From the IMG/VR virus record IMGVR_UViG_3300020198_000009, positions 1 to 64,000 of that record: DNA of 64,000 nucleotides; one strand, written 5' to 3'. This document shows positions 7,234-63,635 of this stretch, piece by piece. The position numbers were made by a program, and so were the translations under genes. The DNA is from a virus. The stretch's first letter is position 1. Each line of letters begins with the position of its first letter. The notes below the pieces were generated by a model. The model saw only the letters and a program-made list of their open reading frames with translations, had not been told where the DNA came from and did not search any database.

Positions 7234-7801
7234 GGGCAATCCTCCTGTGGGGTGTCTTGATGGAGAGACGTGGAAAACCGCCCGCTGATCGGGAGGGGCT
7301 GGCCCCGGGCACCTAAAATCGAACCAGCACATCCGCCACGGATAACCCGCGCCGGCACGAGGCACCAGACGAGACCCGAAGGTCGTCAGGTGCCCCGCAC
7401 CGGCGCGGGACCCGAGAAGGAGGTGCCGGTCCTTGTGATTGCTGGGAAGTTACCAGCCCGGACGCCCTTGGCTGCCGTGAACGGGATGGGTTGCCAATCC
7501 CATCCCGCAGCACGCCTCCGGCGTCCGGTGACTGTCATTGCGGCGGGGTTCAAGCGCTCCAGGCTGTGGGCCCACCTGGAGACGGGCGGTCGTCATCCGC
7601 TCTCGCTAACCCCTTCGGCGGGTCGGGGCCCGCTATGCAATTCTGGGCGAACCGTCGCCCAGGAGGGGCGCCCCGTTCTTGCCACGGGGCCACAGCGCGC
7701 CCGCCAGTCGGGAACCGGCTGGGTGCGCGTCGTGAGACGCCACGAATCTCTCGCCATAACCGCAGGTTTGGCGGGAGAGGTTCAACGGCCGCCGGGATCA
7801 C
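7234..7801 (-). ncRNA. 568-base structured noncoding segment
   Basis: No credible gene on either strand. The DNA is full of long complementary arms. A two-tier hairpin has CCCGCGCCGG (7346-7355) pairing with 7400-7409 and an inner 11-bp stem with one A-A mismatch (7361-7372 with 7383-7394). A branch has CCGGACGCC (7458-7466) pairing with 7520-7528 and enclosing GGGATGGG/CCCATCCC (7483-7490, 7499-7506). Further hairpins lie at 7557-7581, 7671-7690 and about 7750-7780. Flanking genes are leftward, so a minus-strand RNA is assumed. It may be a stand-alone ncRNA or a folded leader of the gene ending at 7233. Confidence 0.5.
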
Positions 7802-8107
7802 CTAGCTCCGGATGAGGCAGCGGCAGCCGATGACGGCGCCCGCCTCGTCCCGGACCAGCTCTCCGGGAGCCAGGAGATCACCCCGGCCGCCCGCCGCCGC
7901 GGCGACGAGGGCGGAAACGACGAAGAACGTGTCGGCCTGCGGCTCCGGCAGGTCGACCACGGCGCCGAATTCCCGGCGCTGGCAGGGGATGCCGCCGACC
8001 GACCCGGCGTCGGTCAGCTCGGCGGCGACCCGCGCCACCCGCCCGGAGGGCGGAATGGGCGGGAAGCCAACGACCTGGATCTGGTGAGGGGTTAAATTTA
8101 CGATCAC
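7802..8107 (-). CDS. Small phage protein of the N-L-T-P-H type (101 aa)
   Basis: GTG start at 8107 seven bases after a GGGAGGAGGTG ribosome site, giving MIVNLTPHQIQVVGFPPIPP. The order LTPH, PPSGRVARV, IPCQRREFG, LPEPQADTFFVVSALVA, RGDLLAPGELVRDE and a closing GAVIGCRCL matches a small family often seen in actinobacteria and their phages. The family has no assigned biochemical role that I know of. The downstream and upstream sequences are noncoding and strongly folded. Confidence 0.7.
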   Translation of the reverse strand: MIVNLTPHQIQVVGFPPIPPSGRVARVAAELTDAGSVGGIPCQRREFGAVVDLPEPQADTFFVVSALVAAAAGGRGDLLAPGELVRDEAGAVIGCRCLIRS

Positions 8108-8402
8108 TGGGACACCTCCTCCCGCCTGATGCGGGGCAGATTGAGGGGATCCGCGGCCGGTATGTTTAACGTCCCCCGGCCGGGACGGGGCGCATACCCT
8201 CACGAGGTGGCGAGCCTCGCTACGCTTTGCGCTGAATGACCTCCGGCATCACCACGCCGGCCGCCGGGATCACGCCACGTACTGGAGCCTCTTGCGAGAC
8301 CTTTCCTGGCGTGCACCCCGGCGGAATAAGCGCTGGATATTCTCCCACCCTCCAGCGTGGCGGCCACCGCGCCCCCGGTGGCCAGGTGGGGGGGGTAGCT
8401 AG
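8108..8402 (-). other. Structured noncoding spacer (295 bases)
   Basis: No plausible gene. Nested stems GGTATG (8159-8164) with 8193-8198 and GTCCC (8171-8175) with 8182-8186, a CACGCCA/TGGCGTG pair around 8271-8312, CGCTGGA/TCCAGCG around 8330-8356 and GGCCACC/GGTGGCC (8362-8368, 8377-8383). The spacing looks like a chain of hairpins upstream of the ribosome site of the next leftward gene. Confidence 0.4.
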
Positions 8403-8705
8403 CTAGAGAATCGTACCCCCCTGGCAGAACCCGGAGCCGAAGCGCCGGGCTGCCTTGGCGTACCGCCCCTTGCGCCAGGGGCGGTGGGCGGCGGCCTGGC
8501 CCATCCTGACCCGGCCGACCAATTCGGCCAGGGTCAGGACGACCCCGGCCATCTCGACGGCGACCCCGGCCCCGCCCCGCAGGGCGGAGAACGCGGCCTT
8601 CGCCATGTCCTGGGCCTTGGCCCAAGACATGCCGGCTTCGGCGGGGTCGGCGGCTTCGGCGGCTTCGGCGGCGGCGGGGTCGGCGTTGGTGTTGGGATCC
8701 TGCAT
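8403..8705 (-). CDS. Unknown Ala-rich protein with hydrophobic centre (100 aa)
   Basis: Starts MQDPNTNADPAAAEAAEAAD with GGAGGTG five bases upstream. A low-complexity Ala/Glu segment leads to a helical region (WAKAQDMAKAAFSALRGGAG), a hydrophobic stretch VAVEMAGVVLTLAELVG near residues 50-68 and a basic C-terminus. The layout suggests a membrane-interacting or amphipathic helix protein. No family recognised; the gene stands alone between noncoding segments. Confidence 0.55.
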   Translation of the reverse strand: MQDPNTNADPAAAEAAEAADPAEAGMSWAKAQDMAKAAFSALRGGAGVAVEMAGVVLTLAELVGRVRMGQAAAHRPWRKGRYAKAARRFGSGFCQGGTIL

Positions 8706-8936
8706 GTAGCACCTCCGTGGGCCGCCCCCTGTAAGGGCGGCAGACTTGACCGGGCCCCCAGCGCGTCCCATCCACGGCCCCCGAGGGGACCATGGCTAGA
8801 GGACCGACCCTTACGGCTCAGGCTGCAACCATTCCTGGTCTGTGCCGAGCCTCGGGGGCCGTTTGCCCTGGGGCGGGGAAACTTGCGAGAACCCAAAGGG
8901 GTTCTCAAAGATATTTAACAGAAAACGCCGCTACCT
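8706..8936 (-). other. Structured noncoding spacer with a 13-bp inverted repeat
   Basis: ACGGCCCCCGAGG (8774-8786) pairs with CCTCGGGGGCCGT (8850-8862). Inside lies a hairpin with GGCTC/GAGCC arms and an inner GACCA-GGAA-TGGTT stem-loop. It also contains, on the minus strand, GCCGTAAGGGTCG, close to the 5' part of the tRNA-like element at 9742-9806. A second hairpin, GAGAACCC/GGGTTCTC near 8888-8907, lies downstream of the gene ending at 8937 and may act as its 3' end. Confidence 0.45.
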
Positions 8937-9233
8937 TTACGGGTCGCAGCGGACCATTTCGGCGGCCACCTGGTCCCGGGCGAGAGCGTCCGACGCCGCC
9001 CACTCGGGAACCCGGTTCTCCCGGACGGCCTCCTTGCAGAGGGTCTTCCGGGTCACGAAGAGCACCGCCATCTCCTCGCGGGCACAGGAATACTCGTCGT
9101 AGGCAGCCTGGGCCAGCGCCCAGGCGCCTGACGACCTGGCATCGGACTCGGCGGTTTCGTAAGCCAGGCGCGCCAGCCTGACCCACCACCAGGTCCGGTG
9201 AAATAGCGTCAAGAACTCCAGGTAGTCCTTCAC
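8937..9233 (-). CDS. Unknown helical protein (98 aa)
   Basis: GTG start at 9233 overlapping the upstream stop as GTGA; first residues MKDYLEFLTLFHRTWWWVRL. The protein is helical, aromatic at the N-terminus and mixed-charge later (ARLAYETAESDARSSG). The sequence contains no metal site or membrane segment. It is translated from the same message as the 136-residue gene, downstream of the tRNA-like elements. Confidence 0.6.
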   Translation of the reverse strand: MKDYLEFLTLFHRTWWWVRLARLAYETAESDARSSGAWALAQAAYDEYSCAREEMAVLFVTRKTLCKEAVRENRVPEWAASDALARDQVAAEMVRCDP

Positions 9234-9640
9234 GCGCCGCGGCCCCCCCGCGGGGCCTGGTAGTGCCGCCGGCGCTCGGCCAGCTGCGCGCGGATGAGCG
9301 CGCGCAGCCGATCCGCGTGATACCCGAGCCGGTCGGCCCACCAGGCCAACGAGCCCGGGGCCGCCCCTGTGGCGCCGAGCCAGGCCCACGTCTCTCCCCG
9401 GTCGCTCCGGAGGTCGGCGATGGCCTGCCGGACGACCGCCCAGGCGATCGTCCGCTCGGCGCCGGCGGCCAGATCGAGGGGCCGGCCGACCGTGGCCCTG
9501 GCCCGGTCGAGGACCTCCATGGCCTCGACCAGGTGGGCCTGGGCGTAGTCCCGGCCCTCGGGGGTGCGGCAACGCCGCGCGGCCCGTCGCCAGAAGGCGA
9601 CCAGGCGCTCGGCGTTGCCGAGGTAGAGCAGGTCCTGCAT
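9230..9640 (-). CDS. Unknown helical protein (136 aa)
   Basis: ATG preceded by AAAGGAGG. The sequence is Arg/Ala/Leu/Trp-rich (MQDLLYLGNAERLVAFWRRA), predicted helical throughout, with an Arg-rich C-terminus (RRRHYQAPRGGRGA) that could bind nucleic acid. It begins only 22 bases after the tRNA-like element at 9663-9740 and is probably co-transcribed with it. No family recognised. Confidence 0.6.
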   Translation of the reverse strand: MQDLLYLGNAERLVAFWRRAARRCRTPEGRDYAQAHLVEAMEVLDRARATVGRPLDLAAGAERTIAWAVVRQAIADLRSDRGETWAWLGATGAAPGSLAWWADRLGYHADRLRALIRAQLAERRRHYQAPRGGRGA

Positions 9641-9662
9641 GTGGACCTCCTTTCGACCTTAG

Positions 9663-9740
9663 TGGAACCACCGGGACTCGAACCCGGCTCCCTCCTGTGC
9701 GCTTTGGCTTTCGGGAGGGAGGGCACCTGCGACTGGTCCC
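9663..9740 (-). ncRNA. tRNA-like element 2, alanine-type acceptor stem, no anticodon arm
   Basis: Read on the minus strand it starts GGGACCA and ends TGGTTCC-A, a 7-bp acceptor stem whose third pair is G-U and whose next unpaired base is A. A canonical T arm precedes the 3' strand: CCGGG-TTCGAGT-CCCGG. Between them, instead of D and anticodon arms, lies a long CTCCCTCC/GGAGGGAG stem with a large loop. A G3-U70 pair plus A73 is the known alanyl-tRNA synthetase identity set and works on minihelices; charging here is inferred. CCA is not encoded. It begins one base after element 1. Confidence 0.6.
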
Positions 9741-9741
9741 A

Positions 9742-9806
9742 TGGTGGAGCCGGCGGGTACTGACCCCGCGTGCCAGGCTTGCGCCCGGTCGACCCTTTAC
9801 GGCCCC
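9742..9806 (-). ncRNA. tRNA-like element 1, tmRNA-end-like, alanine-type acceptor with encoded CCA
   Basis: Minus-strand sequence starting GGGGCCG and ending CGGCTCC-A-CCA: a 7-bp acceptor stem with a G3-U70 pair, A73 and encoded CCA. The T arm is GCGGG-GTCAGTA-CCCGC. Between acceptor and T arm are an unpaired TAAAGGGTCGA and a 6-bp CCGGGC/GCCTGG stem capped by a GCAA tetraloop. The 5' GGGTCGACCGGG and 3' end resemble the tRNA-like domain of tmRNA (GGxTTCGACxGGG and CCCGCxxGCTCCACCA), but there is no messenger domain and total length is only 65. The phage-type -10 box at 9812-9817 would place the transcript start at or near its first base. Confidence 0.6.
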
Positions 9807-9811
9807 ATGAA

Positions 9812-9817
9812 ATTATC
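9812..9817 (-). promoter_or_regulatory. -10 box of the tRNA-like transcript
   Basis: Minus-strand GATAAT followed by TTC, matching the TATAATTTC/TATAATTC boxes at other phage gene starts. The first base of tRNA-like element 1 lies six bases downstream, the usual distance to a transcription start. Confidence 0.5.
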
Positions 9818-10422
9818 GCCAGGGTGGCGCCTGGACTTCCAGTGATGGGGACGGGCTGCTCATACTGCCCGTCGCTCCCGGATCCCGGCTTGGTGTTTTG
9901 GGCCGCAAACCACAATCGGCCTCTTGCACCGGGAGCAAAACTTGGCGAGTGCCCGTCAGCGCTGCACGCAGTACCCCTGGAAACGGGGCAGATCCCGAAG
10001 GACCAGGACGGGTTTCTCGCCAGTATGGAGTATACCAGCCGACCCGGGGTTGGGTCAAGCTGGGGTTGCCCCTCGGCCTCCGGCCCCGGGCCGGGGGTCA
10101 TCGGACGCGACCGAAATCCCGGCGCCTCCCGTCCTCTGCGCCTGCCGGTCTATGGCTGCGCCGACGAGGACGGGAGTCGCCGAAAAGCCCTCGCGCGCTG
10201 TGTCGATGTTGTCGTTACGCGAGATGCGAGGGCCCGGGGGAGATCCCACCCGAGCGCCTGCTGCATGCTGCGCCGAGTGGGTGGGATCTCCTCGTAGCTG
10301 GCATCAGATCTCGATGCCAGCCTCCTCATGACTACCCCTTCCTGTCCCTCGCGGGACGGTCGCGGCGCAGTGGCGGCGGCTCGATGCCAGGCCTTGCGCC
10401 AGGTGGTGGTGGTGGGGGGGGG
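9818..10422 (-). ncRNA. 605-base structured noncoding segment
   Basis: No credible gene. Long perfect arms: GACGGGC (9850-9856) with 9867-9873; CTCCCGG (9875-9881) with 9929-9935; CTCCCGTCCTC (10126-10136) with 10166-10176; GGAGATCCCACCC (10239-10251) with 10279-10291; CTGGCAT/ATGCCAG at 10298-10320. A TATACT box on the minus strand (10029-10034) is a possible internal promoter. It ends just after the stop of the 119-residue gene. Candidate large structured RNA; class unknown. Confidence 0.5.
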
Positions 10423-10782
10423 CTACTCGGCGCGGTAGGTGGGGTCCCCCGGCCTCTGGTTGCAGAGGCCCGGGGGCACCCCGGCCGCCTGCGCCACGGC
10501 CGACGCGGCCAGGGCGGCGTCCAGCGCCACCTGCGGGCCGACCGTGTCCCGCGCCACGCGGGCGGCCGCCCGCGCGGACAAACCCTTCGTGGCGGCCTCC
10601 CACGCCTGCCACGACGCCTCCTCGGCGTCGTTAGCGGCGGCGAAGGCCGCCCGTGCCGCCTCGACGAGCACTACTTGCGTCGCGCTCAGGACGATGCGCC
10701 CGTCGGGCGCTATGGTCCGGGGCCGTGGGTCGTCGAGGTGGCGGCCGGACCCGCCGCCGATGTGCTCCCAGATCCCGCTCAT
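10423..10782 (-). CDS. Unknown Ala-rich helical protein (119 aa)
   Basis: ATG five bases after AAAGGAGG; begins MSGIWEHIGGGSGRHLDDP. Most of the length is a long Ala-rich helix (about residues 38-100), with Val/Ala heptad-like spacing that might form a coiled coil, and a Pro/Gly C-terminus. No motif identifies a function. It sits alone between two folded noncoding segments. Confidence 0.55.
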   Translation of the reverse strand: MSGIWEHIGGGSGRHLDDPRPRTIAPDGRIVLSATQVVLVEAARAAFAAANDAEEASWQAWEAATKGLSARAAARVARDTVGPQVALDAALAASAVAQAAGVPPGLCNQRPGDPTYRAE

Positions 10783-10984
10783 GCCCCCTCCTTTCTTCGC
10801 CCGTACTGGGCGTCCTTGTCCTCGGAACGGCCGGGAGCCGGGGAGTATTTCGCCACCCCCATGGCGCCCGCCCGAGATGGCGGGAAAAATCTTCGGCCGG
10901 AGCGGGCTTTGCCAGCAGCATGCCAGCGCCAGCCACCCGTACTACCCAGCCCTTCCGGACCGGGGTTCCTCGTGTTGGCAGCCC
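10783..10984 (-). other. Noncoding spacer (202 bases)
   Basis: No gene seen. Small hairpins such as CGCCC/GGGCG near 10799-10813 precede the ribosome site of the 119-residue gene; less clearly folded than the other spacers of this island. Confidence 0.35.
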
Positions 10985-11113
10985 CTAGAACCACGCCGGC
11001 CCGCTGGATAGAAACCAGCAAGCCAGCGCCATGCCAAGCGCCCCAAGAATGTACCTGACGACCGGCGGCTGGCGCCCGAGCCACCGGTCGAGGAGGGCCT
11101 CAAGCCGACGCAT
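10985..11113 (-). CDS. Single-span membrane miniprotein (42 aa)
   Basis: Begins MRRLEALLDRWLGRQPP, then a hydrophobic span about residues 19-35 (VRYILGALGMALACWFL) and a short tail ending WF. GGGAGGG lies five bases before the ATG, and the gene starts 14 bases inside the end of the preceding small gene. Size and topology would suit a lysis accessory or membrane-targeted phage peptide; nothing proves it. Confidence 0.55.
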   Translation of the reverse strand: MRRLEALLDRWLGRQPPVVRYILGALGMALACWFLSSGPAWF

Positions 11114-11291
11114 GAAACCCTCCCACCAGTTGCCGCAGCGACATGGTGGCCAGCGGGCCGACCAGCCGCTGCGGCGGCGGGGTCGTCGGGGGCGGTGTGG
11201 TGGTCCTGGCCTCGACGACGGCCACCCGGCGCTCCAGGGCGCCGAGGGCCGCCAGGACGACCAGGGCGGCGGAGAGGTCTCCTGCGCTCAC
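11100..11291 (-). CDS. Small protein with N-terminal hydrophobic helix and Pro/Thr linker (63 aa)
   Basis: The GTG at 11291 overlaps the upstream stop as GTGA, so it depends on coupled translation; there is only a weak ribosome site of its own. Residues about 5-18 (DLSAALVVLAALGA) are hydrophobic, then a charged helix and a Thr/Pro-rich linker (TTTPPPTTPPP). It is one of three coupled small, mostly membrane-type proteins (10985-11614). Confidence 0.55.
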   Translation of the reverse strand: MSAGDLSAALVVLAALGALERRVAVVEARTTTPPPTTPPPQRLVGPLATMSLRQLVGGFHASA

Positions 11292-11614
11292 GAGCCCAGG
11301 AGGTCCACCGCCTGGTCGTCGAGCTGGCCGGCGGCATAGTGCCGCCCCTGCTCCCTGAGGCGGTCCGCCATCGCCCGGAGCTCTCGGCTCCGGGCGATCT
11401 TGTCGCTGACCGGGGTCGTGTCGCTCGGCGGCGCGGCCATATCGGCCTCGGCCGCGAGGCGGTCGCGCTCGGCCCTATCGGCCTCGGCCTGCTCGGCCGC
11501 CTCGACCGAGGCCGCAGCCGCGCCGACGATGGCCAGGCCGGTGAGCACGGCCAAGCCGATGACGCCCAGGACGTTACCGGCGATCTCGCCGGCCTTCTTC
11601 GAATCAAAACCCAT
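11288..11614 (-). CDS. Membrane-anchored coiled-coil protein (108 aa)
   Basis: ATG five bases after AGGAGGTG; begins MGFDSKKAGEIAGNVLGVIG. A hydrophobic span about residues 12-34 is followed by an Ala/Glu/Arg coiled-coil-like helix (about 38-60) and a second charged helix. The topology of one membrane span plus coiled coil resembles spanin-like or scaffold membrane proteins, but no lipobox or partner gene is evident. First gene of the three-gene cluster. Confidence 0.55.
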   Translation of the reverse strand: MGFDSKKAGEIAGNVLGVIGLAVLTGLAIVGAAAASVEAAEQAEADRAERDRLAAEADMAAPPSDTTPVSDKIARSRELRAMADRLREQGRHYAAGQLDDQAVDLLGS

Positions 11615-11851
11615 TTTACACCTCCTGGAAAGGGAGGCCGGATGCCCAAAGGGCCGGCACCTGTCGATCGGCGCGGCCACCAAGATGGTGTAGCCGTCCG
11701 ACCTACCGGGTGCCGTTGCTCGGCCCATCTTGACGAAATGGCGGCAGCGGGGCATTGAACCCCGCTCGGGACCTTCAGACGACCGCGACACCCCGGAGGG
11801 GCTCGTTTGATCGCCTCTATGCCAGGCTGACACCCGGCATGTCCTTCAGCC

Positions 11852-11888
11852 CTCGCAGCCTGTCAGAGCCGCTTCCGCTTGCCGCTTG
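11852..11888 (+). repeat. 37-bp direct repeat, copy 1
   Basis: Identical to 11924-11960. Each copy contains three CCGCTT units in tandem-like spacing, reminiscent of iterons. The copies are 72 bases apart, with an AT-rich stretch between them in an otherwise GC-rich genome. Confidence 0.85.
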
Positions 11889-11923
11889 CTAAATAAATGA
11901 ATAACCCCTCCTAAGTAAAATTA

Positions 11924-11960
11924 CTCGCAGCCTGTCAGAGCCGCTTCCGCTTGCCGCTTG
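11924..11960 (+). repeat. 37-bp direct repeat, copy 2
   Basis: Perfect second copy of 11852-11888. Together with the intervening AAATAAATGAATAA-type sequence it could be a replication origin, a recombination site or a packaging signal. Confidence 0.85.
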
Positions 11961-12232
11961 GGATCCCCATGGCAGACGAGCATGGCCCGCCTGCCATGGG
12001 GATGCCGGGGAAGCTTCCCCGGCAAAAGGCGACCTGCCCGTGGACGACACGGCCTACGCCGTACCGGGGCCGATACGAGGTTCGCCACGCCCCGACCCCT
12101 TCACATCGCTACCCACGGGCACTTTTCTCGAAGCGCCGCGAAACACCGCCTTTCCGCCCGGCGGCAGGGGCATCGCTTAATTCATGGCGATCCTCCCTTC
12201 AACGAGCCCAAAAGCGCGTTTCAGGGATATTT

Positions 12233-12254
12233 AGCCGAAAAACACGGCTTTTTT
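12233..12254 (+). terminator. Hairpin with T run, rightward orientation
   Basis: AGCCG (12233-12237) pairs with CGGCT (12245-12249), followed by a run of T through 12254. This is an intrinsic terminator on the plus strand although both neighbouring genes are on the minus strand; it may stop a rightward noncoding or antisense transcript. Confidence 0.5.
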
Positions 12255-12301
12255 AGGTGCGCGTTAGCACCACAATGGCGCGATTTTTGGCGCGATTCGG
12301 G

Positions 12302-50160: not shown

Positions 50161-53058
50161 ATGTCGAGCGAGACCTTCATCGAGGACGGCGAAACCGGAC
50201 GCCGCGTCATCGTCACGGACCGAAAGAAGATTGCCGAGGCGGTACTGCATCTCAAGGGCAGGCCCCTCAAGCTCGACAACTACCGGCCCTTCCATGCCAT
50301 CTACCGCACTTCGGCACAAAACCTTGTGATACAGGCGGGACGGCAAGTGTCAAAATGTGGCACCGGCGAGAACATGATCCCCATGTTCAACGGCATGCCG
50401 GCCAGGCTCGGCGCCCTCCGGCCAGGCGATAAGGTTTTGTCTCTGGCATCTGGCTACCGCCTGGTGACTGGACAGGTGAGCGACACCATCCAAGCCGGCA
50501 GGAAGCCATGCGTGCGCCTGACGACCCGCTTGGGGCACGAGCTGGAGGTCGCCCGGAGTCATCCGATTCGCGGTCTGTTCGACTACTATCCGGCGGGCGA
50601 ACTCAAGATTGGCGACCGAGTGGCGGCTGTGCGTCGCGGCGGCTCCTTCACAGACCTGAACCCCATAACGCCGACCGAGGCCATGGTGCTCGCCTACATG
50701 ATTGGCGACGGCAGCGCTCAGGGTAAGCAGAACTTCGGCTTCACGAACTCCAAACCGGAGATCTTGGCCGAGTTCCGGTCATGCTGCGCCATGCTGGGCC
50801 AGGTCGCGCCACGAGAGTACGAACGCAAGGGCTCCTTGACGCTTCGGCTCTCGCTGGCATCGGATGCCCCGGTTCGTCGTCTCCTGGAACATCAGGGTAT
50901 CTATGGCAAGACCTCGGAAACGAAGTTCATCCCAGCCGAGGTATTCGACCTCGATCGCGAGCGCACGGCGCTCTTCCTGAATCGACTCTGGGCGTGCGAT
51001 GGCCATGCCAAGCAACTCAATCCTGGGAAATATGAAATCCACTACGCCACAATCTCGAAAAAACTGGCCCATGGCGTTCAAGCGCTCCTGTGGAAGTTCG
51101 GAATCCCGGCCTCGGTATCCCGGAGTCAACCGAAAGTCTATATAGGCACCAACAAATTCGCCTACAAGGTGCGAATTGAAACCCAAGAAGGTATCCGCCG
51201 CTTCTTGACCGAGATCGGCGCTTTCATGAAGAGCGAGAGCATCCCACTTCCGGCAGCCGAGAGTAACAATAACCGCGATACCATCCCGCAGGACGTGCAA
51301 AAGCTCATCACGGCACTCTACGAGCGCGCCCTGGCCCGGGATGCCCTGTGCGGACCCGGGCGTGCGGGGCGGCCTAGGGCTAGCATCACGGATCACGGCC
51401 TGCGCGCCACCCTAAAATACCCCCCCTCGCCACGAAAGATCGCCCAATACGTCGAGTTCTTTCAGCAGATCGGGCTCGGAGACGAACCGGAAACCATTAC
51501 CCTCGAATCACTGATCAACAACGACGTGATCTGGGATAAGATTATTGCGATCGAAGACATCGGCATGCAGGATTGTTACGACATCGAAGTCGATGTTCTG
51601 CACAACTACATCCTGGGCGGCGTTGTCACCCATAACTCGACCACCCTGGGAAACTGGTCCATCACCGACGCCATCGGCGTGCCCCATTCCGAGCAGTTGA
51701 TCGTCCTGCCCTCGATCATGCAGATGCGCCGCTTCTCATCGGACAAAGTGGGAAAAATCGTCGCCACCAGCCCGCTTGTCAAGAAATGGTTCGTCGACCA
51801 CACCTGCGAGCGCGCCATCTACAAACGCAGCTTCCTCAACGGCTCGACCATGGAATTCGCCGCCATGACCCAGATGGAATCCATACGCGGCGGCGCCAAG
51901 AACCGGGTGTCGGAAGACGAAGTGCAGGACATGGACCTGGACGCGCTTGCCATAGTGGAGGAGGTGCTAAGCGGACAAGCAAGTGACAAGATAGCAATTG
52001 CCCGCACCGGCACGGCCAAGACCGTCGGCAACACGCTGGATGTGACGTTCAAGAAATCGAGCCAGTGCGAATGGATAGTGCCATGCCCAAGCGGTCACCA
52101 CAACGTCCCGAGCCCGGACAACATCGGCGATCGGGGCTTCATTTGCAAGAAATGCCGCAGCCTCTGCGACGTGCGCGGTGGCTACTGGCGCTCCATGGCG
52201 GGCCTCGACGCCGAGTGGATGGGCTTCCACATCCCCCAGATCATCCTGCCGCTCCATACCGAGGACCAAGGAAACTGGCGCAAGCTCCTGCGAAAGCGCA
52301 ACGGCGGCGTCAGCCCGGTCGTCTTTCTCAACGAGGTCATGGGCATTCCTGCCGGCTCGGGCATCACCGCCCTGACCGAAGAGGACCTGATCAAGTGCTG
52401 CGAACCGGTCTACGAGATAGACCCCCACTACTTCCGCGGCAAGGACCACGACATCGCCGTGGTATTCGGTACCTGCGACTGGGGCCTGATGGCCATCAAG
52501 AGCTTCACGATTGCCAGCATCTGGGGGATCACCAAGGCCGGGCGCATCAAGCTGCTGTTTGCCTATCGCTTCCTGGACCCCGATCCCTACAAGCAGGTCG
52601 AGCAGATCATCCGGCTCTTCACGAACGCGGGGGTCGAGCTGGTCGGCTGCGACTGGGGCATGGGCATGATCCAGAGCCGCATCATCGAGGAGCAGATGCC
52701 CCAGGTCCCGGTCCATCGCTTTATGTACGTCGGCGAGCAGCGGGCCCTGATGAGCTGGTACAAGGAGGGCAAGCTCTGGCGGGTGAACCGTACCCAGGCC
52801 ATGACCGAAGCTTTCGTCTGGATGAAGCGCCAGCGTTTCTGGTTCCCGAACTGGTCATGGTTCAAGGAATACATCGCGCCGGATATATTATGTATTTACG
52901 AAGAGGCAGTAAATCAAGTCACATTCAAGAACGATGTCATACGGTACGCACACCCCGATTCCCAGGCCGATGACGCCACTCACACCTGCGTCTACGCCCT
53001 GCTGCTCCTTTGGATCCTTTATGACCGCGGCCGTACGGAGTTCCATCTGGCAGGCTAG
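50161..53058 (+). CDS. terL: Terminase large subunit with an intein (TerL precursor)
   Basis: 965-residue precursor: 538 residues of terminase interrupted by a 427-residue intein. The flanking exteins rejoin as GRQVSK-STTLGNW, a terminase Walker A. Later motifs include a Walker B-like SEDEVQDMD, and nuclease-domain aspartates in CDWGLMAIKSF, GCDWGMGM and DSQADDATH. TerL cuts concatemers and pumps DNA through the portal. Lone rightward gene between two leftward blocks, controlled by the operator at 50137. Activity depends on splicing, because the intein splits the ATP-binding loop. Confidence 0.9.
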   Translation: MSSETFIEDGETGRRVIVTDRKKIAEAVLHLKGRPLKLDNYRPFHAIYRTSAQNLVIQAGRQVSKCGTGENMIPMFNGMPARLGALRPGDKVLSLASGYRLVTGQVSDTIQAGRKPCVRLTTRLGHELEVARSHPIRGLFDYYPAGELKIGDRVAAVRRGGSFTDLNPITPTEAMVLAYMIGDGSAQGKQNFGFTNSKPEILAEFRSCCAMLGQVAPREYERKGSLTLRLSLASDAPVRRLLEHQGIYGKTSETKFIPAEVFDLDRERTALFLNRLWACDGHAKQLNPGKYEIHYATISKKLAHGVQALLWKFGIPASVSRSQPKVYIGTNKFAYKVRIETQEGIRRFLTEIGAFMKSESIPLPAAESNNNRDTIPQDVQKLITALYERALARDALCGPGRAGRPRASITDHGLRATLKYPPSPRKIAQYVEFFQQIGLGDEPETITLESLINNDVIWDKIIAIEDIGMQDCYDIEVDVLHNYILGGVVTHNSTTLGNWSITDAIGVPHSEQLIVLPSIMQMRRFSSDKVGKIVATSPLVKKWFVDHTCERAIYKRSFLNGSTMEFAAMTQMESIRGGAKNRVSEDEVQDMDLDALAIVEEVLSGQASDKIAIARTGTAKTVGNTLDVTFKKSSQCEWIVPCPSGHHNVPSPDNIGDRGFICKKCRSLCDVRGGYWRSMAGLDAEWMGFHIPQIILPLHTEDQGNWRKLLRKRNGGVSPVVFLNEVMGIPAGSGITALTEEDLIKCCEPVYEIDPHYFRGKDHDIAVVFGTCDWGLMAIKSFTIASIWGITKAGRIKLLFAYRFLDPDPYKQVEQIIRLFTNAGVELVGCDWGMGMIQSRIIEEQMPQVPVHRFMYVGEQRALMSWYKEGKLWRVNRTQAMTEAFVWMKRQRFWFPNWSWFKEYIAPDILCIYEEAVNQVTFKNDVIRYAHPDSQADDATHTCVYALLLLWILYDRGRTEFHLAG
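50356..51636 (+). mobile_element. Intein with LAGLIDADG-type homing endonuclease in the TerL P-loop
   Basis: Begins with Cys (CGTGENMIPMFNG, block A), has a block-B-like ARSHPIRG, two LAGLIDADG-like helices (AYMIGDGSAQG near residue 180 of the intein-containing precursor and LNRLWACDGHAK near residue 275), and ends VDVLHNYILGGVVTHN before Ser. These are the N- and C-terminal splicing motifs with an Asn/Ser junction. All expected residues appear intact, so protein splicing and homing are predicted. Exact insertion is between Lys and Ser of the Walker A. Confidence 0.85.
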
Positions 53059-59345: not shown

Positions 59346-62300
59346 ATGCGCGCGCCAGCCGAGACCCACCAGGCGATGACCCGGGCGCTGGAAGCCGGCC
59401 TCAAGCAGGTATTCCCGGTTGCGGCCGGCAACCGCATGCTCGATCTGGTCGCGGTCCATGCCCCCGACCTGCCGGATCCCCATGACTGGAACGGCCAGAA
59501 GGACGCGGTCATGGATGGTAGGACCTGGGGCAGCCCACTGCGCGCCACCCTGGCGCTCAAGGATGCACAGGGCAAGGTGCTCGACCAGAAGGCCGTGAGG
59601 CTGGCCACCATACCGGCTCCGACCAATCGCCACACGTTCATCGTCGATGGCCGGGAGTACCAGGTCAACTACCAGCGCCGGCTGAAACCCGGGATCTACA
59701 CCAAGGTCGATCGCACCGGCGCACCGGTGGCCGACTTCAACCTCGGACATGGCCGCAACTTCGCCGTCACGCTCGACCCGGAACGGAACCAGTTCCATCT
59801 GCGCCTGGGCAACGCCCACATCCCCCTGGGCCATGTCCTGGCTGGCCTGCGCGAATCGGGAGATCCCTCCCTGGGGCTGGGCAAGGCCTTCGAGCACCCG
59901 GCGGGCCCGGAGGAGACCGAGCGCGCCTTGCGGGAATTCTATGTCCAGACCCACCGCAACAAACCCATCCCTGCCGACCTGGCAGGCCTCAAGGCCGCCG
60001 TCCGCACCTGGTTCGACCACGCTACGCTCTCGCCCGAGACCACCCGGCTCACGGTCGGCGAATCCTACGGCCATGTCACCGACCAGGCGTTGCGGACTGC
60101 CGCGAGGCATGTCCTGGAAATCCACCGCGGCGATCGTCATCCGACCCACAAGGATCAGCTGGCTTACCAGGAGATCCACGGGGTCGAGGACTTCCTCAAG
60201 GAACGCCTGGTCAAGAACAAGCTGGGGCTGCACGGCCGGTTGCGCCAGACCCTCGATCGGGCCGACAAGCTCGCGGACCTCAACCTACCGGCGACCTTCG
60301 GGCCGTCAGTGCACCACTTCTTCACCCAGAGCTCGCTCTCGAACCATCCCATGCAGGTCAACCCGCTGGAAATGGCCGAGAACGCCCACAAGATCACCTC
60401 GATGGGCGAAGGCGGCATCGGAGACGCCAACGCCATCCCGATCGAGGTCAGGAACATCCATCCATCCACGTTGGGCTTCATCGACCCGGTCCGCACGCCC
60501 GACAACGCCCATGCCGGCGTGGATGTCCGCACCACCGTGCGCTCCCGCAAGGTCGGGAACCAGCTGGCGATTCCCGTCCGCGATGCCAGGACCGGCCGGG
60601 AGGTCTTCAAGACCCCTGGCGAGCTGTTCGACACGCACGTCGCCCACGACAGGGAGCCCGCCGAGAACGGCGTGGTACGCGCCATCCACCAGGGCCATGT
60701 CGTCTGGGCAAAGCCAGAGCAGATAGACTACCACCTCCCGACCGAGCACCAGTTCACGGTCAGTACGGCCCTGGTGCCCTTCATCCCCAACAGCCACGCC
60801 CACCGGGTGGCCATGGGCGCCAAGATGCTGGGCCAAGCCGTCAGTCTCGACGACCGCGAGGCGCCGATCGTGCGGACCGCCCATGCAAATACCGCGATCT
60901 CGGGCCTGTTGCCGCGCAGCCCGGTCGACGGGACCGTGGCCACGATCGTGAACGGAGCCATCAAGATCCAGGACAAGGACGGCAAGAGTCACCTCGCGCA
61001 CTATCCGCACGAGTTTCCGCTCAACGGCGGCTCGTTCCTGCATGCAGACCTGCATGTCAAGCCCGGCGACCGGGTCTCGCAAGGGCAGGTCCTCGGCGAC
61101 TTGAACTTCACCCGCGACGGCAACCTTGCACTTGGAAAAAATTTAACCGTTGCTTATCTGCCGTATCGTGGCCATAACTTCGAAGACGGCCTGGTGGTTA
61201 CCGAACAGGGTGCCCGCAAGCTTACCAGCAGCCACCTGCATACCGAAGTCGCCCTCAAGGACGGCCGCAACGTCTACGATCTCAAGCAGTTCAAGGGCCA
61301 CTTCCCCTCGACCTACACCCACGAGCAGCTCGGCAAACTCGATCCCCATGGCGTGGTACGCGTGGGCCAGGAGGTCGTCGAGGGCGACCCGCTGGTCGCG
61401 GGCCTGCGCAAGCGCGTGGTCGATCCCGAGCAGCTCATCCTGGGTAAGGCCCACAAGGGCCTCATGGAGCCCTACCGGGACGCCAGCCTGACCTGGGACA
61501 AGCCCTACGCCGGCAAGATCACGGCCGTATCCAAGACCGGCGACCAAATAAAGGTGACCATCCAGGCCAAGGCGCCGCTCCAGTTGGCCGACAAAATCTC
61601 TAATTTGTACGGCGCGAAGGGCGTCGTGACAACGATCATCCCCGACCACGAGGCGCCCCGGACAGCCAGCGGTGAGATCCCCGACGTCATCCAGAACTCG
61701 GCGGGCCTGATCAGCCGCATGAACAACGGCCAGCTCTACCACCTGACCGCCGCCAAGGCCGTCAAGGCCCTGGGGCTCGATCACATGGTCTTCCCGCAGT
61801 TCCTGGGCCAGGACGCCCACGAAGTGGTCTCGCGCCTGGCCGAAAAGGCCGGCATCGCCCCGGAAGAAGAGCTGTTCGACCCCAAGACCAATCGCAGTCT
61901 GGGTAAGGTGATGATCGGCCCGCAGTACATGCTCAAGCTCTTCAAACAAGCCGAGACCGGCTTCTCGGCGCGGGCCGGCGGGCGTTATGACGTCGATCTG
62001 CGACCGGCCAAGGGCGGCGAGGAGGGGGCCAAGTCCATCGGCTACCTCGACGTCTTCGGGTTGCTCAGTCACGGCAGCCGTGGCCTGTTGCGCCAGGCGG
62101 CGACCACCAATGCCGAATTCAACCCCGAGGTCTTGCAAGCCATATGGCGGGGCCAGCCCCTGCCGCCCCCCAGGCCCACGTTTGCCTGGCGGAAGTTCGA
62201 GGCCATGTTGCGCGGGGCGGGCGTCAACGTCACCCAGGACGGCCACAAGCTGGTCATGCTGCCGATGACCGACCAGGACACCCTGCGAGTCTCGCAGGGC

Positions 62301-63635
62301 CAGATCCGCAAACCCCTGCTGGTCAACGCCAAGGAGGACCCTCGCACCGGCCTGCCCTTCCGGCCCGAAACGGGCGGTCTGTTCGATCACGAGTCCACCG
62401 GCGGCCTGGTCGGCAACAAGTGGTCGCATATCACGTTGCCCGAGCCCGTGGTGAGCCCGCTGTTCGCCCGGCCGGCCCGCATCCTGCTCGGAATGAGCCA
62501 GCAGGCTTTCGGTGAGACGATGGCCACCGAGGGCGGGGCGGGTATCGCCAAGCGCCTGGCCGGGATCGATCCGAAGACGCGCATCGCCGAACTCGGCGAG
62601 CGGCTCAAGACGACCAGCGCGGCGGCCAAGCGCGACCAGATCCACAAGCAGCTCAAGTACCTCAAGCCGCTGGCCGCCCACGGCATCAGCCCGGCCGACG
62701 CGTACGTCGTGCGCCATGTGCCGGTCATCCCTCCCGCGATGCGGCCCATCTACCCGGACGCCGACACCGGCAAGCTGGTCAACTCGGATGCCAACCTGCT
62801 CTACCAGCACCTGCTGCTCATCGGGGATCAGCTGGCCCACCACCAGCACGAGGGCGATCCCGACACCGTGCGCGAATTGCGCCTGGGGCTGCATGACGCC
62901 CTGGCCAAGGTGCAGGGCCTCGACCCGACCACTGAATCCATGGGCAAGGGCTACGAGCCGCAGGGCTTCCTCAAGCTCATCACGGGCTCGCGCGCCAAGG
63001 AAGGCTTCTTCCAGAGTAAATTGCTCTCGCGGCGCCAGGACATCGCCGGCCGCGGGGTCATCACGCCCAATCCGGCGCTGGGTATCGACGAGCTGGGCTT
63101 GCCTGAGCCGATGGCCTGGAAGCTCTACCGCAACCATGTGGTGGGTGAGTTGACCCGGGCCGGCCTGCCGCTCGAAAGTATCGCCAAGCATGTCGAAGAG
63201 CAGACACCCCTGGCGCGCAAGGCCCTGCAAGCAACCATGGCCGACAATCCGGTGATCATGACCCGGGCGCCCAGCCTGCACCGCTTCAACCTCATGGCCT
63301 TCAAGCCGCAACTGACCAGCGGCAAGCACATCGAGGTTCCAAACCTGGTCGTCAAGGGCTTTAACGCTGACTTCGACGGTGACGCGGTCAACGTCCACAT
63401 CCCCATCACCCCGGAGGCCAAGGCCGACGCCTGGCGCGTGCTGCCATCGAAGAACCTATTCTCGACGCTCAACAAGAGCCCGATGCACACGCCCAGCCAG
63501 GAGGTCACCATGGGGCTCTGGAAGCTCGGCCAGCCCAATGGTAAGGCCACCCGGACCTTCAAGAGCCGCGCCGAAGCCATCGCCGCCTACAAGAAGGGCG
63601 ACATCGGCATCGCCGACCCGATCGAAATAGGTTGA
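59346..63635 (+). CDS. Phage RNA polymerase: beta fused to the N-terminal half of beta-prime
   Basis: 1429 residues. Beta motifs in order: HHFFTQSSLSNHPMQVNPLE near residue 325, DPVRTPDNAHAG, VAYLPYRGHNFEDGLVVTE near 600, ADKISNLYGAKGVVTTIIPD near 747, and a beta C-terminus GYLDVFGLLSHGSRGLLRQ near 898. Without a stop it passes into beta-prime: LLSRRQDIAGRGVITPNPAL, NPVIMTRAPSLHRFNL and the catalytic metal-binding NADFDGD at 1340-1346, then PSQEVTMGLW, ending at residue 1429. The rest of beta-prime (bridge helix and trigger loop) is absent and must be another gene. This is the core of a phage-encoded polymerase. Confidence 0.9.
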   Translation: MRAPAETHQAMTRALEAGLKQVFPVAAGNRMLDLVAVHAPDLPDPHDWNGQKDAVMDGRTWGSPLRATLALKDAQGKVLDQKAVRLATIPAPTNRHTFIVDGREYQVNYQRRLKPGIYTKVDRTGAPVADFNLGHGRNFAVTLDPERNQFHLRLGNAHIPLGHVLAGLRESGDPSLGLGKAFEHPAGPEETERALREFYVQTHRNKPIPADLAGLKAAVRTWFDHATLSPETTRLTVGESYGHVTDQALRTAARHVLEIHRGDRHPTHKDQLAYQEIHGVEDFLKERLVKNKLGLHGRLRQTLDRADKLADLNLPATFGPSVHHFFTQSSLSNHPMQVNPLEMAENAHKITSMGEGGIGDANAIPIEVRNIHPSTLGFIDPVRTPDNAHAGVDVRTTVRSRKVGNQLAIPVRDARTGREVFKTPGELFDTHVAHDREPAENGVVRAIHQGHVVWAKPEQIDYHLPTEHQFTVSTALVPFIPNSHAHRVAMGAKMLGQAVSLDDREAPIVRTAHANTAISGLLPRSPVDGTVATIVNGAIKIQDKDGKSHLAHYPHEFPLNGGSFLHADLHVKPGDRVSQGQVLGDLNFTRDGNLALGKNLTVAYLPYRGHNFEDGLVVTEQGARKLTSSHLHTEVALKDGRNVYDLKQFKGHFPSTYTHEQLGKLDPHGVVRVGQEVVEGDPLVAGLRKRVVDPEQLILGKAHKGLMEPYRDASLTWDKPYAGKITAVSKTGDQIKVTIQAKAPLQLADKISNLYGAKGVVTTIIPDHEAPRTASGEIPDVIQNSAGLISRMNNGQLYHLTAAKAVKALGLDHMVFPQFLGQDAHEVVSRLAEKAGIAPEEELFDPKTNRSLGKVMIGPQYMLKLFKQAETGFSARAGGRYDVDLRPAKGGEEGAKSIGYLDVFGLLSHGSRGLLRQAATTNAEFNPEVLQAIWRGQPLPPPRPTFAWRKFEAMLRGAGVNVTQDGHKLVMLPMTDQDTLRVSQGQIRKPLLVNAKEDPRTGLPFRPETGGLFDHESTGGLVGNKWSHITLPEPVVSPLFARPARILLGMSQQAFGETMATEGGAGIAKRLAGIDPKTRIAELGERLKTTSAAAKRDQIHKQLKYLKPLAAHGISPADAYVVRHVPVIPPAMRPIYPDADTGKLVNSDANLLYQHLLLIGDQLAHHQHEGDPDTVRELRLGLHDALAKVQGLDPTTESMGKGYEPQGFLKLITGSRAKEGFFQSKLLSRRQDIAGRGVITPNPALGIDELGLPEPMAWKLYRNHVVGELTRAGLPLESIAKHVEEQTPLARKALQATMADNPVIMTRAPSLHRFNLMAFKPQLTSGKHIEVPNLVVKGFNADFDGDAVNVHIPITPEAKADAWRVLPSKNLFSTLNKSPMHTPSQEVTMGLWKLGQPNGKATRTFKSRAEAIAAYKKGDIGIADPIEIG

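What the first reader, a model, noticed from the sequence alone, without database searches (positions are those of the whole stretch)
7234..12301. ncRNA-rich island between strongly SD-led mini-genes
About 2.8 kb of the 5.07 kb is noncoding here, whereas the rest of the window has almost no gap over 170 bases. Every gap holds long GC-rich complementary arms, and each of eight genes has a near-perfect ribosome site. Two tRNA-like elements and a promoter sit inside. This looks like a cluster of structured RNAs or riboregulators, comparable in position and size to the large ornate RNAs (such as GOLLD or ROOL class) that phages carry near tRNA-like genes, but without sequence recognition by eye.
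Basis: partly seen in the sequence, partly recalled or inferred. Interest (0 to 1): 0.7.

Follow-up and report, generated by a model that had tools for sequence, protein, structure and literature searches.

The report
Tag-less tmRNA decoy in phage island
A phage genome holds an unusually noncoding island that encodes a shrunken copy of the bacterial ribosome-rescue RNA (tmRNA) with its tag-coding part missing, most likely a decoy that blocks the host's rescue system; the same kind of RNA, known until now from about one phage, turns up in at least 170 other viral contigs.

Summary
The island is 57% noncoding, against about 3% for the rest of this 80-kb virus record, and contains its six largest gaps and five of its seven strongest ribosome sites. 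The gaps fold more stably than shuffles, but so do the island's own genes. Structured RNA is present, but nothing matches GOLLD or ROOL. The two tRNA-like elements are not tRNAs. TLE1 (9742-9806, minus) is a tmRNA tRNA-like domain without tag or pseudoknots: a covariance model built from tag-less elements of other phages finds it as the best hit in the record (46.6 bits, E about 1e-8), above every tRNA tested (34.6 or less). TLE2 (9664-9740, minus) directly follows, keeps the alanine-type G3.U70 pair and has no anticodon arm; its score (35.4) alone does not separate it from tRNA-Ala. Published precedent: mycobacteriophage DS6A carries a 'TLD-only' tmRNA, and such RNA inhibits tmRNA in E. coli. 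My scans found 170 viral contigs with tag-less elements (strong covariation). Most likely function: an RNA decoy against host trans-translation. This is inferred, not shown. TLE1's T-loop is atypical, so decay is possible. The other hairpins remain unexplained.

The parts
9742..9806 (-). TLE1: tag-less tmRNA (tRNA-like domain only): acceptor GGGGCCG/CGGCTCC with G3.U70 and encoded CCA; D-loop TAAAGGGTCGA without D-stem; 6-bp P2-like hairpin closed by a GCAA tetraloop; T-arm GCGGG-GTCAGTA-CCCGC (atypical loop)
   Evidence: R1 model 46.6 bits, E 9.3e-9, filters off; RF00023 full-length alignment with internal deletion, 29.5 bits, below the cut-off of 47; folds as drawn
9664..9740 (-). TLE2: second tRNA-like element directly after TLE1: GGGACCA/TGGTTCC with G3.U70, 8-bp P2-like arm CTCCCTCC/GGAGGGAG with 18-nt loop, canonical T-arm CCGGG-TTCGAGT-CCCGG, no anticodon arm
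   Evidence: R1 35.4 bits, E 4e-6, second and last significant hit in the record; tRNA-Ala genes reach 34.6; no RF00005 tRNA match even at E 5
10029..10058 (-). sigma70-like promoter TTGACC-18 nt-TATACT with TG before the -10
   Evidence: only site with 10/12 matches in 80 kb
9807..10023 (-). putative structured leader RNA between the promoter and TLE1 (branched structure closed by TGGCGAG/CTCGCCA)
   Evidence: fold of 9660-10023: z -2.1, 1 of 100 shuffles as stable; no relatives found
10126..10322 (-). four tandem hairpins with 10-13-bp stems (10126-10176, 10185-10235, 10239-10291, 10296-10322)
   Evidence: windows with z -4.6 to -5.5; stems listed
11748..11767 (-). T-arm-like hairpin CGGGG-TTCAATG-CCCCG; no convincing acceptor partner
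   Evidence: T-arm regex; R1 only 9.8 bits, not significant
11963..12003 (-). 19-bp hairpin
7346..7409 (-). 21-bp GC-rich hairpin
9230..9640 (-). mini-gene (136 aa, unknown) with strong SD AAGGAGGT; its start lies about 20 nt after the end of TLE2
8937..9233 (-). mini-gene (98 aa, unknown), overlaps the end of 9230-9640
10423..10782 (-). mini-gene (119 aa, unknown), strong SD
11288..11614 (-). mini-gene (108 aa, N-terminal hydrophobic stretch), strong SD
11100..11291 (-). mini-gene (63 aa)
10987..11113 (-). small ORF (42 aa), possible membrane peptide; not called by codon usage
   Evidence: read from the sequence
8403..8705 (-). mini-gene (100 aa, unknown), strong SD
7802..8107 (-). mini-gene (101 aa), phrog_21731/phrog_30542, function unknown; strong SD

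Best explanation
TLE1 is a tag-less tmRNA: the tRNA-like domain of tmRNA without the mRNA-like domain. TLE2, directly behind it, is probably a second, more diverged tRNA-like element of the same sort. Proposed mechanism (inferred): the transcript, possibly from the promoter at 10058, is cut by host RNase P and 3' processing into small RNAs. Their G3.U70 acceptor ends can be charged with alanine and bind EF-Tu, and the tmRNA-type D-loop and T-arm elbow binds SmpB. With no resume codon they cannot complete trans-translation, so they sequester SmpB or jam the pathway and dampen host ribosome rescue and tagging during infection. Shown here: sequence and structure identity of TLE1, G3.U70, absence of a tag frame, and existence of a widespread phage class. 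Inferred: transcription, processing, charging, SmpB binding, inhibition.
For: TLE1's 5' end GGGGCCGTAAAGGGTCGACCGGG is nearly that of a real tmRNA in a relative with the same type of fused RNA polymerase (L088, GGGGGCGTAAAGGGTTCGACTGGG); six of 40 such relatives carry full tmRNAs. Model R1, built from 39 tag-less elements without the window, ranks TLE1 first in the record; tRNAs and full tmRNAs stay at or below 34.6 bits; other tag-less elements found independently of the model score from 48.9 up. The class is real: 118 of 120 first hits have all 7 acceptor pairs although only 4 were forced by the pattern; 97% of cells paired, covariation 0.714 versus 0.144 shuffled and 0.09-0.125 slid; 40 of 42 records score over the Rfam tmRNA cut-off with a 60-80-nt element and none has a second, full tmRNA. 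G3.U70 is also kept where no pattern forced it: TLE1, TLE2, pSt2308, Riptide. Precedent: DS6A is 'TLD only', and a similar RNA strongly inhibits tmRNA, perhaps by titrating SmpB (PMC4131195, citing Mao et al. 2009; PMC11915505).
Against: TLE1's T-loop is GTCAGTA instead of TTCRANN, its RF00023 score (29.5) is below the cut-off and its R1 score is below nearly all of the class, so it may be decaying. TLE2's score lies at the tRNA-Ala range. No expression data. One phage (Riptide) carries a tag-less-like element and a full tmRNA together, which a simple decoy would also inhibit. The decoy effect was measured by others for a different phage's RNA.
Confidence: 0.55

Rival explanations
1. Processing punctuation: TLE1 and TLE2 act in cis as RNase P and 3'-processing sites that cut a long transcript, releasing the upstream structured RNA and giving the mRNA of gene 9230-9640 a short 5' leader just before its SD.
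For: TLE2 ends about 20 nt before the start codon of 9640, and the SD follows directly. Of 170 tag-less elements, 52 have an SD-preceded start within 30 nt downstream.
Against: It does not explain conservation of G3.U70 and of the tmRNA-type D-loop. In the class, -10-like boxes upstream are enriched 2.3-fold (p 2e-5), suggesting some have their own promoter. The count of downstream starts has no random control.
Confidence: 0.2
2. Remnant: TLE1 and TLE2 are decaying pieces of a phage tmRNA and a tRNA-Ala without function.
For: Six relatives have full tmRNAs; TLE1's T-loop is abnormal and its scores are low.
Against: All stems are intact (7/7, 5/5, P2 6 bp with a GNRA loop; 7/7, 5/5, 8 bp). The record keeps only about 3% noncoding DNA elsewhere. 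The form matches a conserved class.
Confidence: 0.17
3. Productive rescue: the tag-less RNA with host SmpB helps release stalled ribosomes without tagging, as proposed for mitochondrial tmRNAs without a tag frame.
For: Tag-less mitochondrial tmRNAs are conserved with SmpB (PMC11915505). Full tmRNAs in relatives suggest that some of these phages gain from rescue.
Against: The similar RNA tested in E. coli inhibited tmRNA (PMC4131195, PMC11915505). No SmpB in this record or in 42 records with tag-less elements.
Confidence: 0.06
4. A large ornate RNA of the GOLLD/ROOL type.
For: Position beside tRNA-like elements; GOLLD does lie next to a permuted tmRNA in Roseobacter phage DSS3P8.
Against: No GOLLD or ROOL match, even at E up to 5. 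The structured stretch between promoter and TLE1 is only about 220 nt.
Confidence: 0.02

Closest known systems
TLD-only tmRNA of mycobacteriophage DS6A (Mao et al. 2009, cited in PMC4131195 and PMC11915505)
   Same: tRNA-like domain of tmRNA, no tag frame, phage-borne. A record of 60,588 b (L321), the DS6A genome length as I remember it (not verified here), has the same acceptor GGGGCCG/CGGCTCC, the same GTCGAC D-loop and the same GGCACGCG before the T-loop.
   Different: TLE1 is shorter (65 against 83 nt), lacks the inner hairpin, has an abnormal T-loop, is followed by a second tRNA-like element, and sits in a phage with its own fused beta-beta' RNA polymerase.
Standard tmRNA (RF00023)
   Same: 5' GGGGnnG...TCGAC, 3' ACGCGGG...CGGCTCCACCA, G3.U70.
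   Different: No mRNA-like domain, tag or pseudoknots; 29.5 bits against a cut-off of 47.
mascRNA/menRNA (RF01684)
   Same: Short tRNA-like RNA without anticodon; weak hit to TLE2 (29.6 bits, cut-off 42.5).
   Different: Eukaryotic lncRNA element; the hit is below the cut-off.
GOLLD (RF02032) and ROOL RNAs
   Same: Phage noncoding RNA near tRNA-like genes.
   Different: No match at E up to 5.

Membership tests
Tag-less (TLD-only) tmRNA | 7-bp acceptor with G3.U70 next to the T-arm | tested here: met
   GGGGCCG/CGGCTCC in TLE1, GGGACCA/TGGTTCC in TLE2
Tag-less (TLD-only) tmRNA | tmRNA-type D-loop (GGnTTCGAC) without D-stem | tested here: met
   TLE1: AAAGGGTCGAC, one base shorter; TLE2 does not show it
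Tag-less (TLD-only) tmRNA | canonical T-loop TTCRANN | tested here: not met
   TLE1 has GTCAGTA; TLE2 has TTCGAGT (met)
Tag-less (TLD-only) tmRNA | score above tRNAs and full tmRNAs in a class-specific model | tested here: met
   TLE1 46.6 against a maximum of 34.6; TLE2 35.4 is borderline
Tag-less (TLD-only) tmRNA | inhibits host tmRNA or binds SmpB | not testable with these tools
   needs a bench assay
Full tmRNA | tag reading frame and pseudoknots between the two halves | tested here: not met
   30 nt between acceptor and T-arm in TLE1; ARAGORN's 145-nt call joins TLE1's 5' end to TLE2's 3' end with an implausible 31-aa tag
tRNA | anticodon arm | tested here: not met
   TLE1 has a GCAA-capped stem, TLE2 an 8-bp stem with 18-nt loop; no RF00005 match
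GOLLD/ROOL | match to the Rfam covariance model | tested here: not met
   none at the gathering score or at E up to 5
Integration site (attP in the 3' part of a tRNA or tmRNA gene) | integrase nearby | tested here: not met
   no PF00589 in the 80-kb record, which may be incomplete

The most novel reading that the evidence does not exclude
Phages widely encode tag-less tmRNAs as RNA decoys against bacterial ribosome rescue (at least 170 contigs found here, an estimated 450-1,200 in IMG/VR, also in Nostocales genomes), and this phage carries a tandem pair inside a dedicated structured-RNA island transcribed with its mini-genes.
Probability: 0.35. Interest if true: 0.8.

Novelty: new member of a known kind. 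Interest (0 to 1): 0.6.

Why it matters
Phage-encoded inhibitors of trans-translation had essentially one RNA precedent (DS6A); the current tmRNA database lists 9 unique 'standard, no CDS' sequences among 97,179 (PMC11915505). If hundreds of unrelated phages carry such an RNA, blocking or redirecting ribosome rescue is a common phage strategy. It can be tested directly in isolates such as Streptomyces phages pSt2308 and Riptide, where the elements lie unannotated. The gene finder ARAGORN misses the class: in the listed part of the output it called none as tmRNA.

Tried and rejected
GOLLD/ROOL and other Rfam families: none over the cut-off; the mraW hit (33 bits) matches both strands of a palindrome. 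Coding frames in the spacers: no PHROG match. ARAGORN's tmRNA at 9662-9806: spans two separate elements. Permuted tmRNA: weak partial hit (30.5 bits), no second half. Several phage isolates hit by blastn turned out to carry true permuted tmRNAs (S-CRM01, SM1, DSS3P8, XM05, PHB04), so they were not counted as tag-less. Close relatives for covariation of the island: none by baseplate protein, RNA polymerase, DNA or the 37-nt repeat. Search of 77 fused-RNAP viral contigs and two phage isolates for tag-less elements: best hits are mostly tRNA-Ala, none above 34.6 bits. A terminator downstream of the elements: not enriched (1/166 versus 10/1517). attP: no integrase.

Full report
Setting. The window is bases 1-64000 of an 80,429-b IMG/VR virus record. 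It encodes a tailed phage with a baseplate J-like protein, portal, terminase, a sigma factor and a 1,429-aa fused beta-beta' RNA polymerase; its nearest named relatives are Salmonella phage Arash and Vibrio phages D181/D148/D69 at 24-33% protein identity. The island is coded on the minus strand.

Observation. Gene calling by codon usage gives 57% noncoding in 7234-12301 and 3.3% elsewhere; the six largest gaps of the record are there, and five of its seven strongest ribosome sites. Gap windows fold more stably than dinucleotide shuffles (mean z -1.80, control genes -0.28, p 4e-6), but the island's own genes do too (-2.13), so folding alone does not mark the spacers as RNA genes. No spacer ORF matches a PHROG family.

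What the tRNA-like elements are. ARAGORN joins two elements into one false tmRNA. At low threshold Rfam aligns 9742-9806 to both ends of tmRNA with the middle missing. The 5' sequence matches real tmRNAs carried by relatives with the same type of polymerase. Both elements fold as tRNA-like domains with G3.U70 acceptors and no anticodon arm. A sigma70-like promoter lies upstream at 10058, with a structured leader of about 217 nt before TLE1.

A class of tag-less tmRNAs. 118 of 120 have perfect 7-bp acceptors. Across 78 non-redundant sequences, acceptor and T-stem show all four Watson-Crick pairs at most free positions, and on the 39-sequence alignment the structure keeps 97% of cells paired with a covariation score of 0.714 versus 0.144 in shuffles. 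40 of 42 records exceed the Rfam tmRNA cut-off, and none has another, full tmRNA; none encodes SmpB. Two narrower scans found 30 and 34 contigs, of which 3 and 9 were in the first sample; this suggests about 1,200 or 450 in all, a rough estimate. In total 170 loci have 7/7 acceptor pairs. In 84,980 bacterial and archaeal species genomes the same pattern gave 35 hits, 26 with full acceptors, about half of them in Nostocales and related cyanobacteria. Two phage isolates have an unannotated element: Streptomyces phages pSt2308 (73.8 bits) and Riptide (48.9); Riptide also has a full tmRNA.

Is TLE1 a member? A model built from 39 class members, window excluded, finds TLE1 (46.6 bits, E 9e-9) and TLE2 (35.4 bits, E 4e-6) as the only significant hits in the record. 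Controls: tRNA-Ala genes reach 34.6, full tmRNA halves 31.1; exact-pattern elements score 51.9-87.6, apart from one truncated case at 38.9. TLE1 is therefore a diverged member with one unmet feature, its T-loop. TLE2 is tRNA-like, but score alone does not separate it from tRNA-Ala; lack of an anticodon arm and of any RF00005 match does. L321, from a 60,588-b record that I believe but did not verify to be DS6A, shares TLE1's acceptor, GTCGAC D-loop and GGCACGCG.

Function. [quoted passage not shown] PMC11915505). By analogy the elements are decoys against host trans-translation. Retained G3.U70 where no pattern forced it (four of four elements) suggests that charging matters. Processing punctuation, decay and productive tag-less rescue remain possible.

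Novelty. The kind is known from one phage, plus organelles. New here: a tandem arrangement, a host phage of a different lineage, and evidence that the class is common in viral contigs and mostly unannotated. The literature search covered open-access text only, so a recent report could have been missed. The tandem hairpins, AT-rich motifs and repeats of the island stay unexplained.

Noticed in passing
window 10126-10322, minus strand: Four hairpins in tandem with 10-13-bp stems (three with 27-31-nt loops); the loops of 10239-10291 and 10126-10176 share CGGCGCAGC..GCAGGCGC. Function unknown.
   Followed up: partly
window 8903-8926 and 12219-12242, minus strand: AT-rich motif GTTTTYnGnTAAATATCnnTGARA, exactly two places in the 80-kb record (up to 5 mismatches allowed), both in island spacers; candidate promoter for the phage's own RNA polymerase.
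   Followed up: partly
window 11852-11888 and 11924-11960: Exact 37-nt direct repeat around a 35-nt AT-rich linker; its 24-nt core is absent from other viral contigs.
   Followed up: partly
window 59346-63635: Fused beta-beta' RNA polymerase (1,429 aa); 310 viral contig stretches encode relatives.
   Followed up: partly
L088, L089, L090, L091, L092, L093: Full-length tmRNA genes in six phages with the fused RNA polymerase.
   Followed up: partly
L257, L262, L263, L264, L273, L274, L278, L280, L281, L284, L290, L291: Very similar 82-nt tag-less tmRNA-like elements in Nostocales and related cyanobacterial genomes; context not examined.
   Followed up: no
L299:2472-2551: Streptomyces phage Riptide carries an unannotated tag-less-like element and a full tmRNA elsewhere.
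   Followed up: partly
L297:1714-2982: Erythrobacter phage XM05: unannotated permuted tmRNA about 0.4 kb before an annotated HslV-family peptidase; possible tag-and-degrade pair.
   Followed up: no
L296:1845-2835: Roseobacter phage DSS3P8: GOLLD RNA shortly before an unannotated alpha-type tmRNA.
   Followed up: no
L095:1470-1600, minus strand: In fused-RNAP phage G011 a tmRNA-like 3' end (31.8 bits, not called as tRNA) is followed by a strong terminator-like hairpin; 5' half not found.
   Followed up: no
window 50161-53058: Terminase large subunit frame of 965 aa whose matches to the nearest terminases start at about residue 473-501, with a long N-terminal part resembling an insertion such as an intein.
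   Followed up: no
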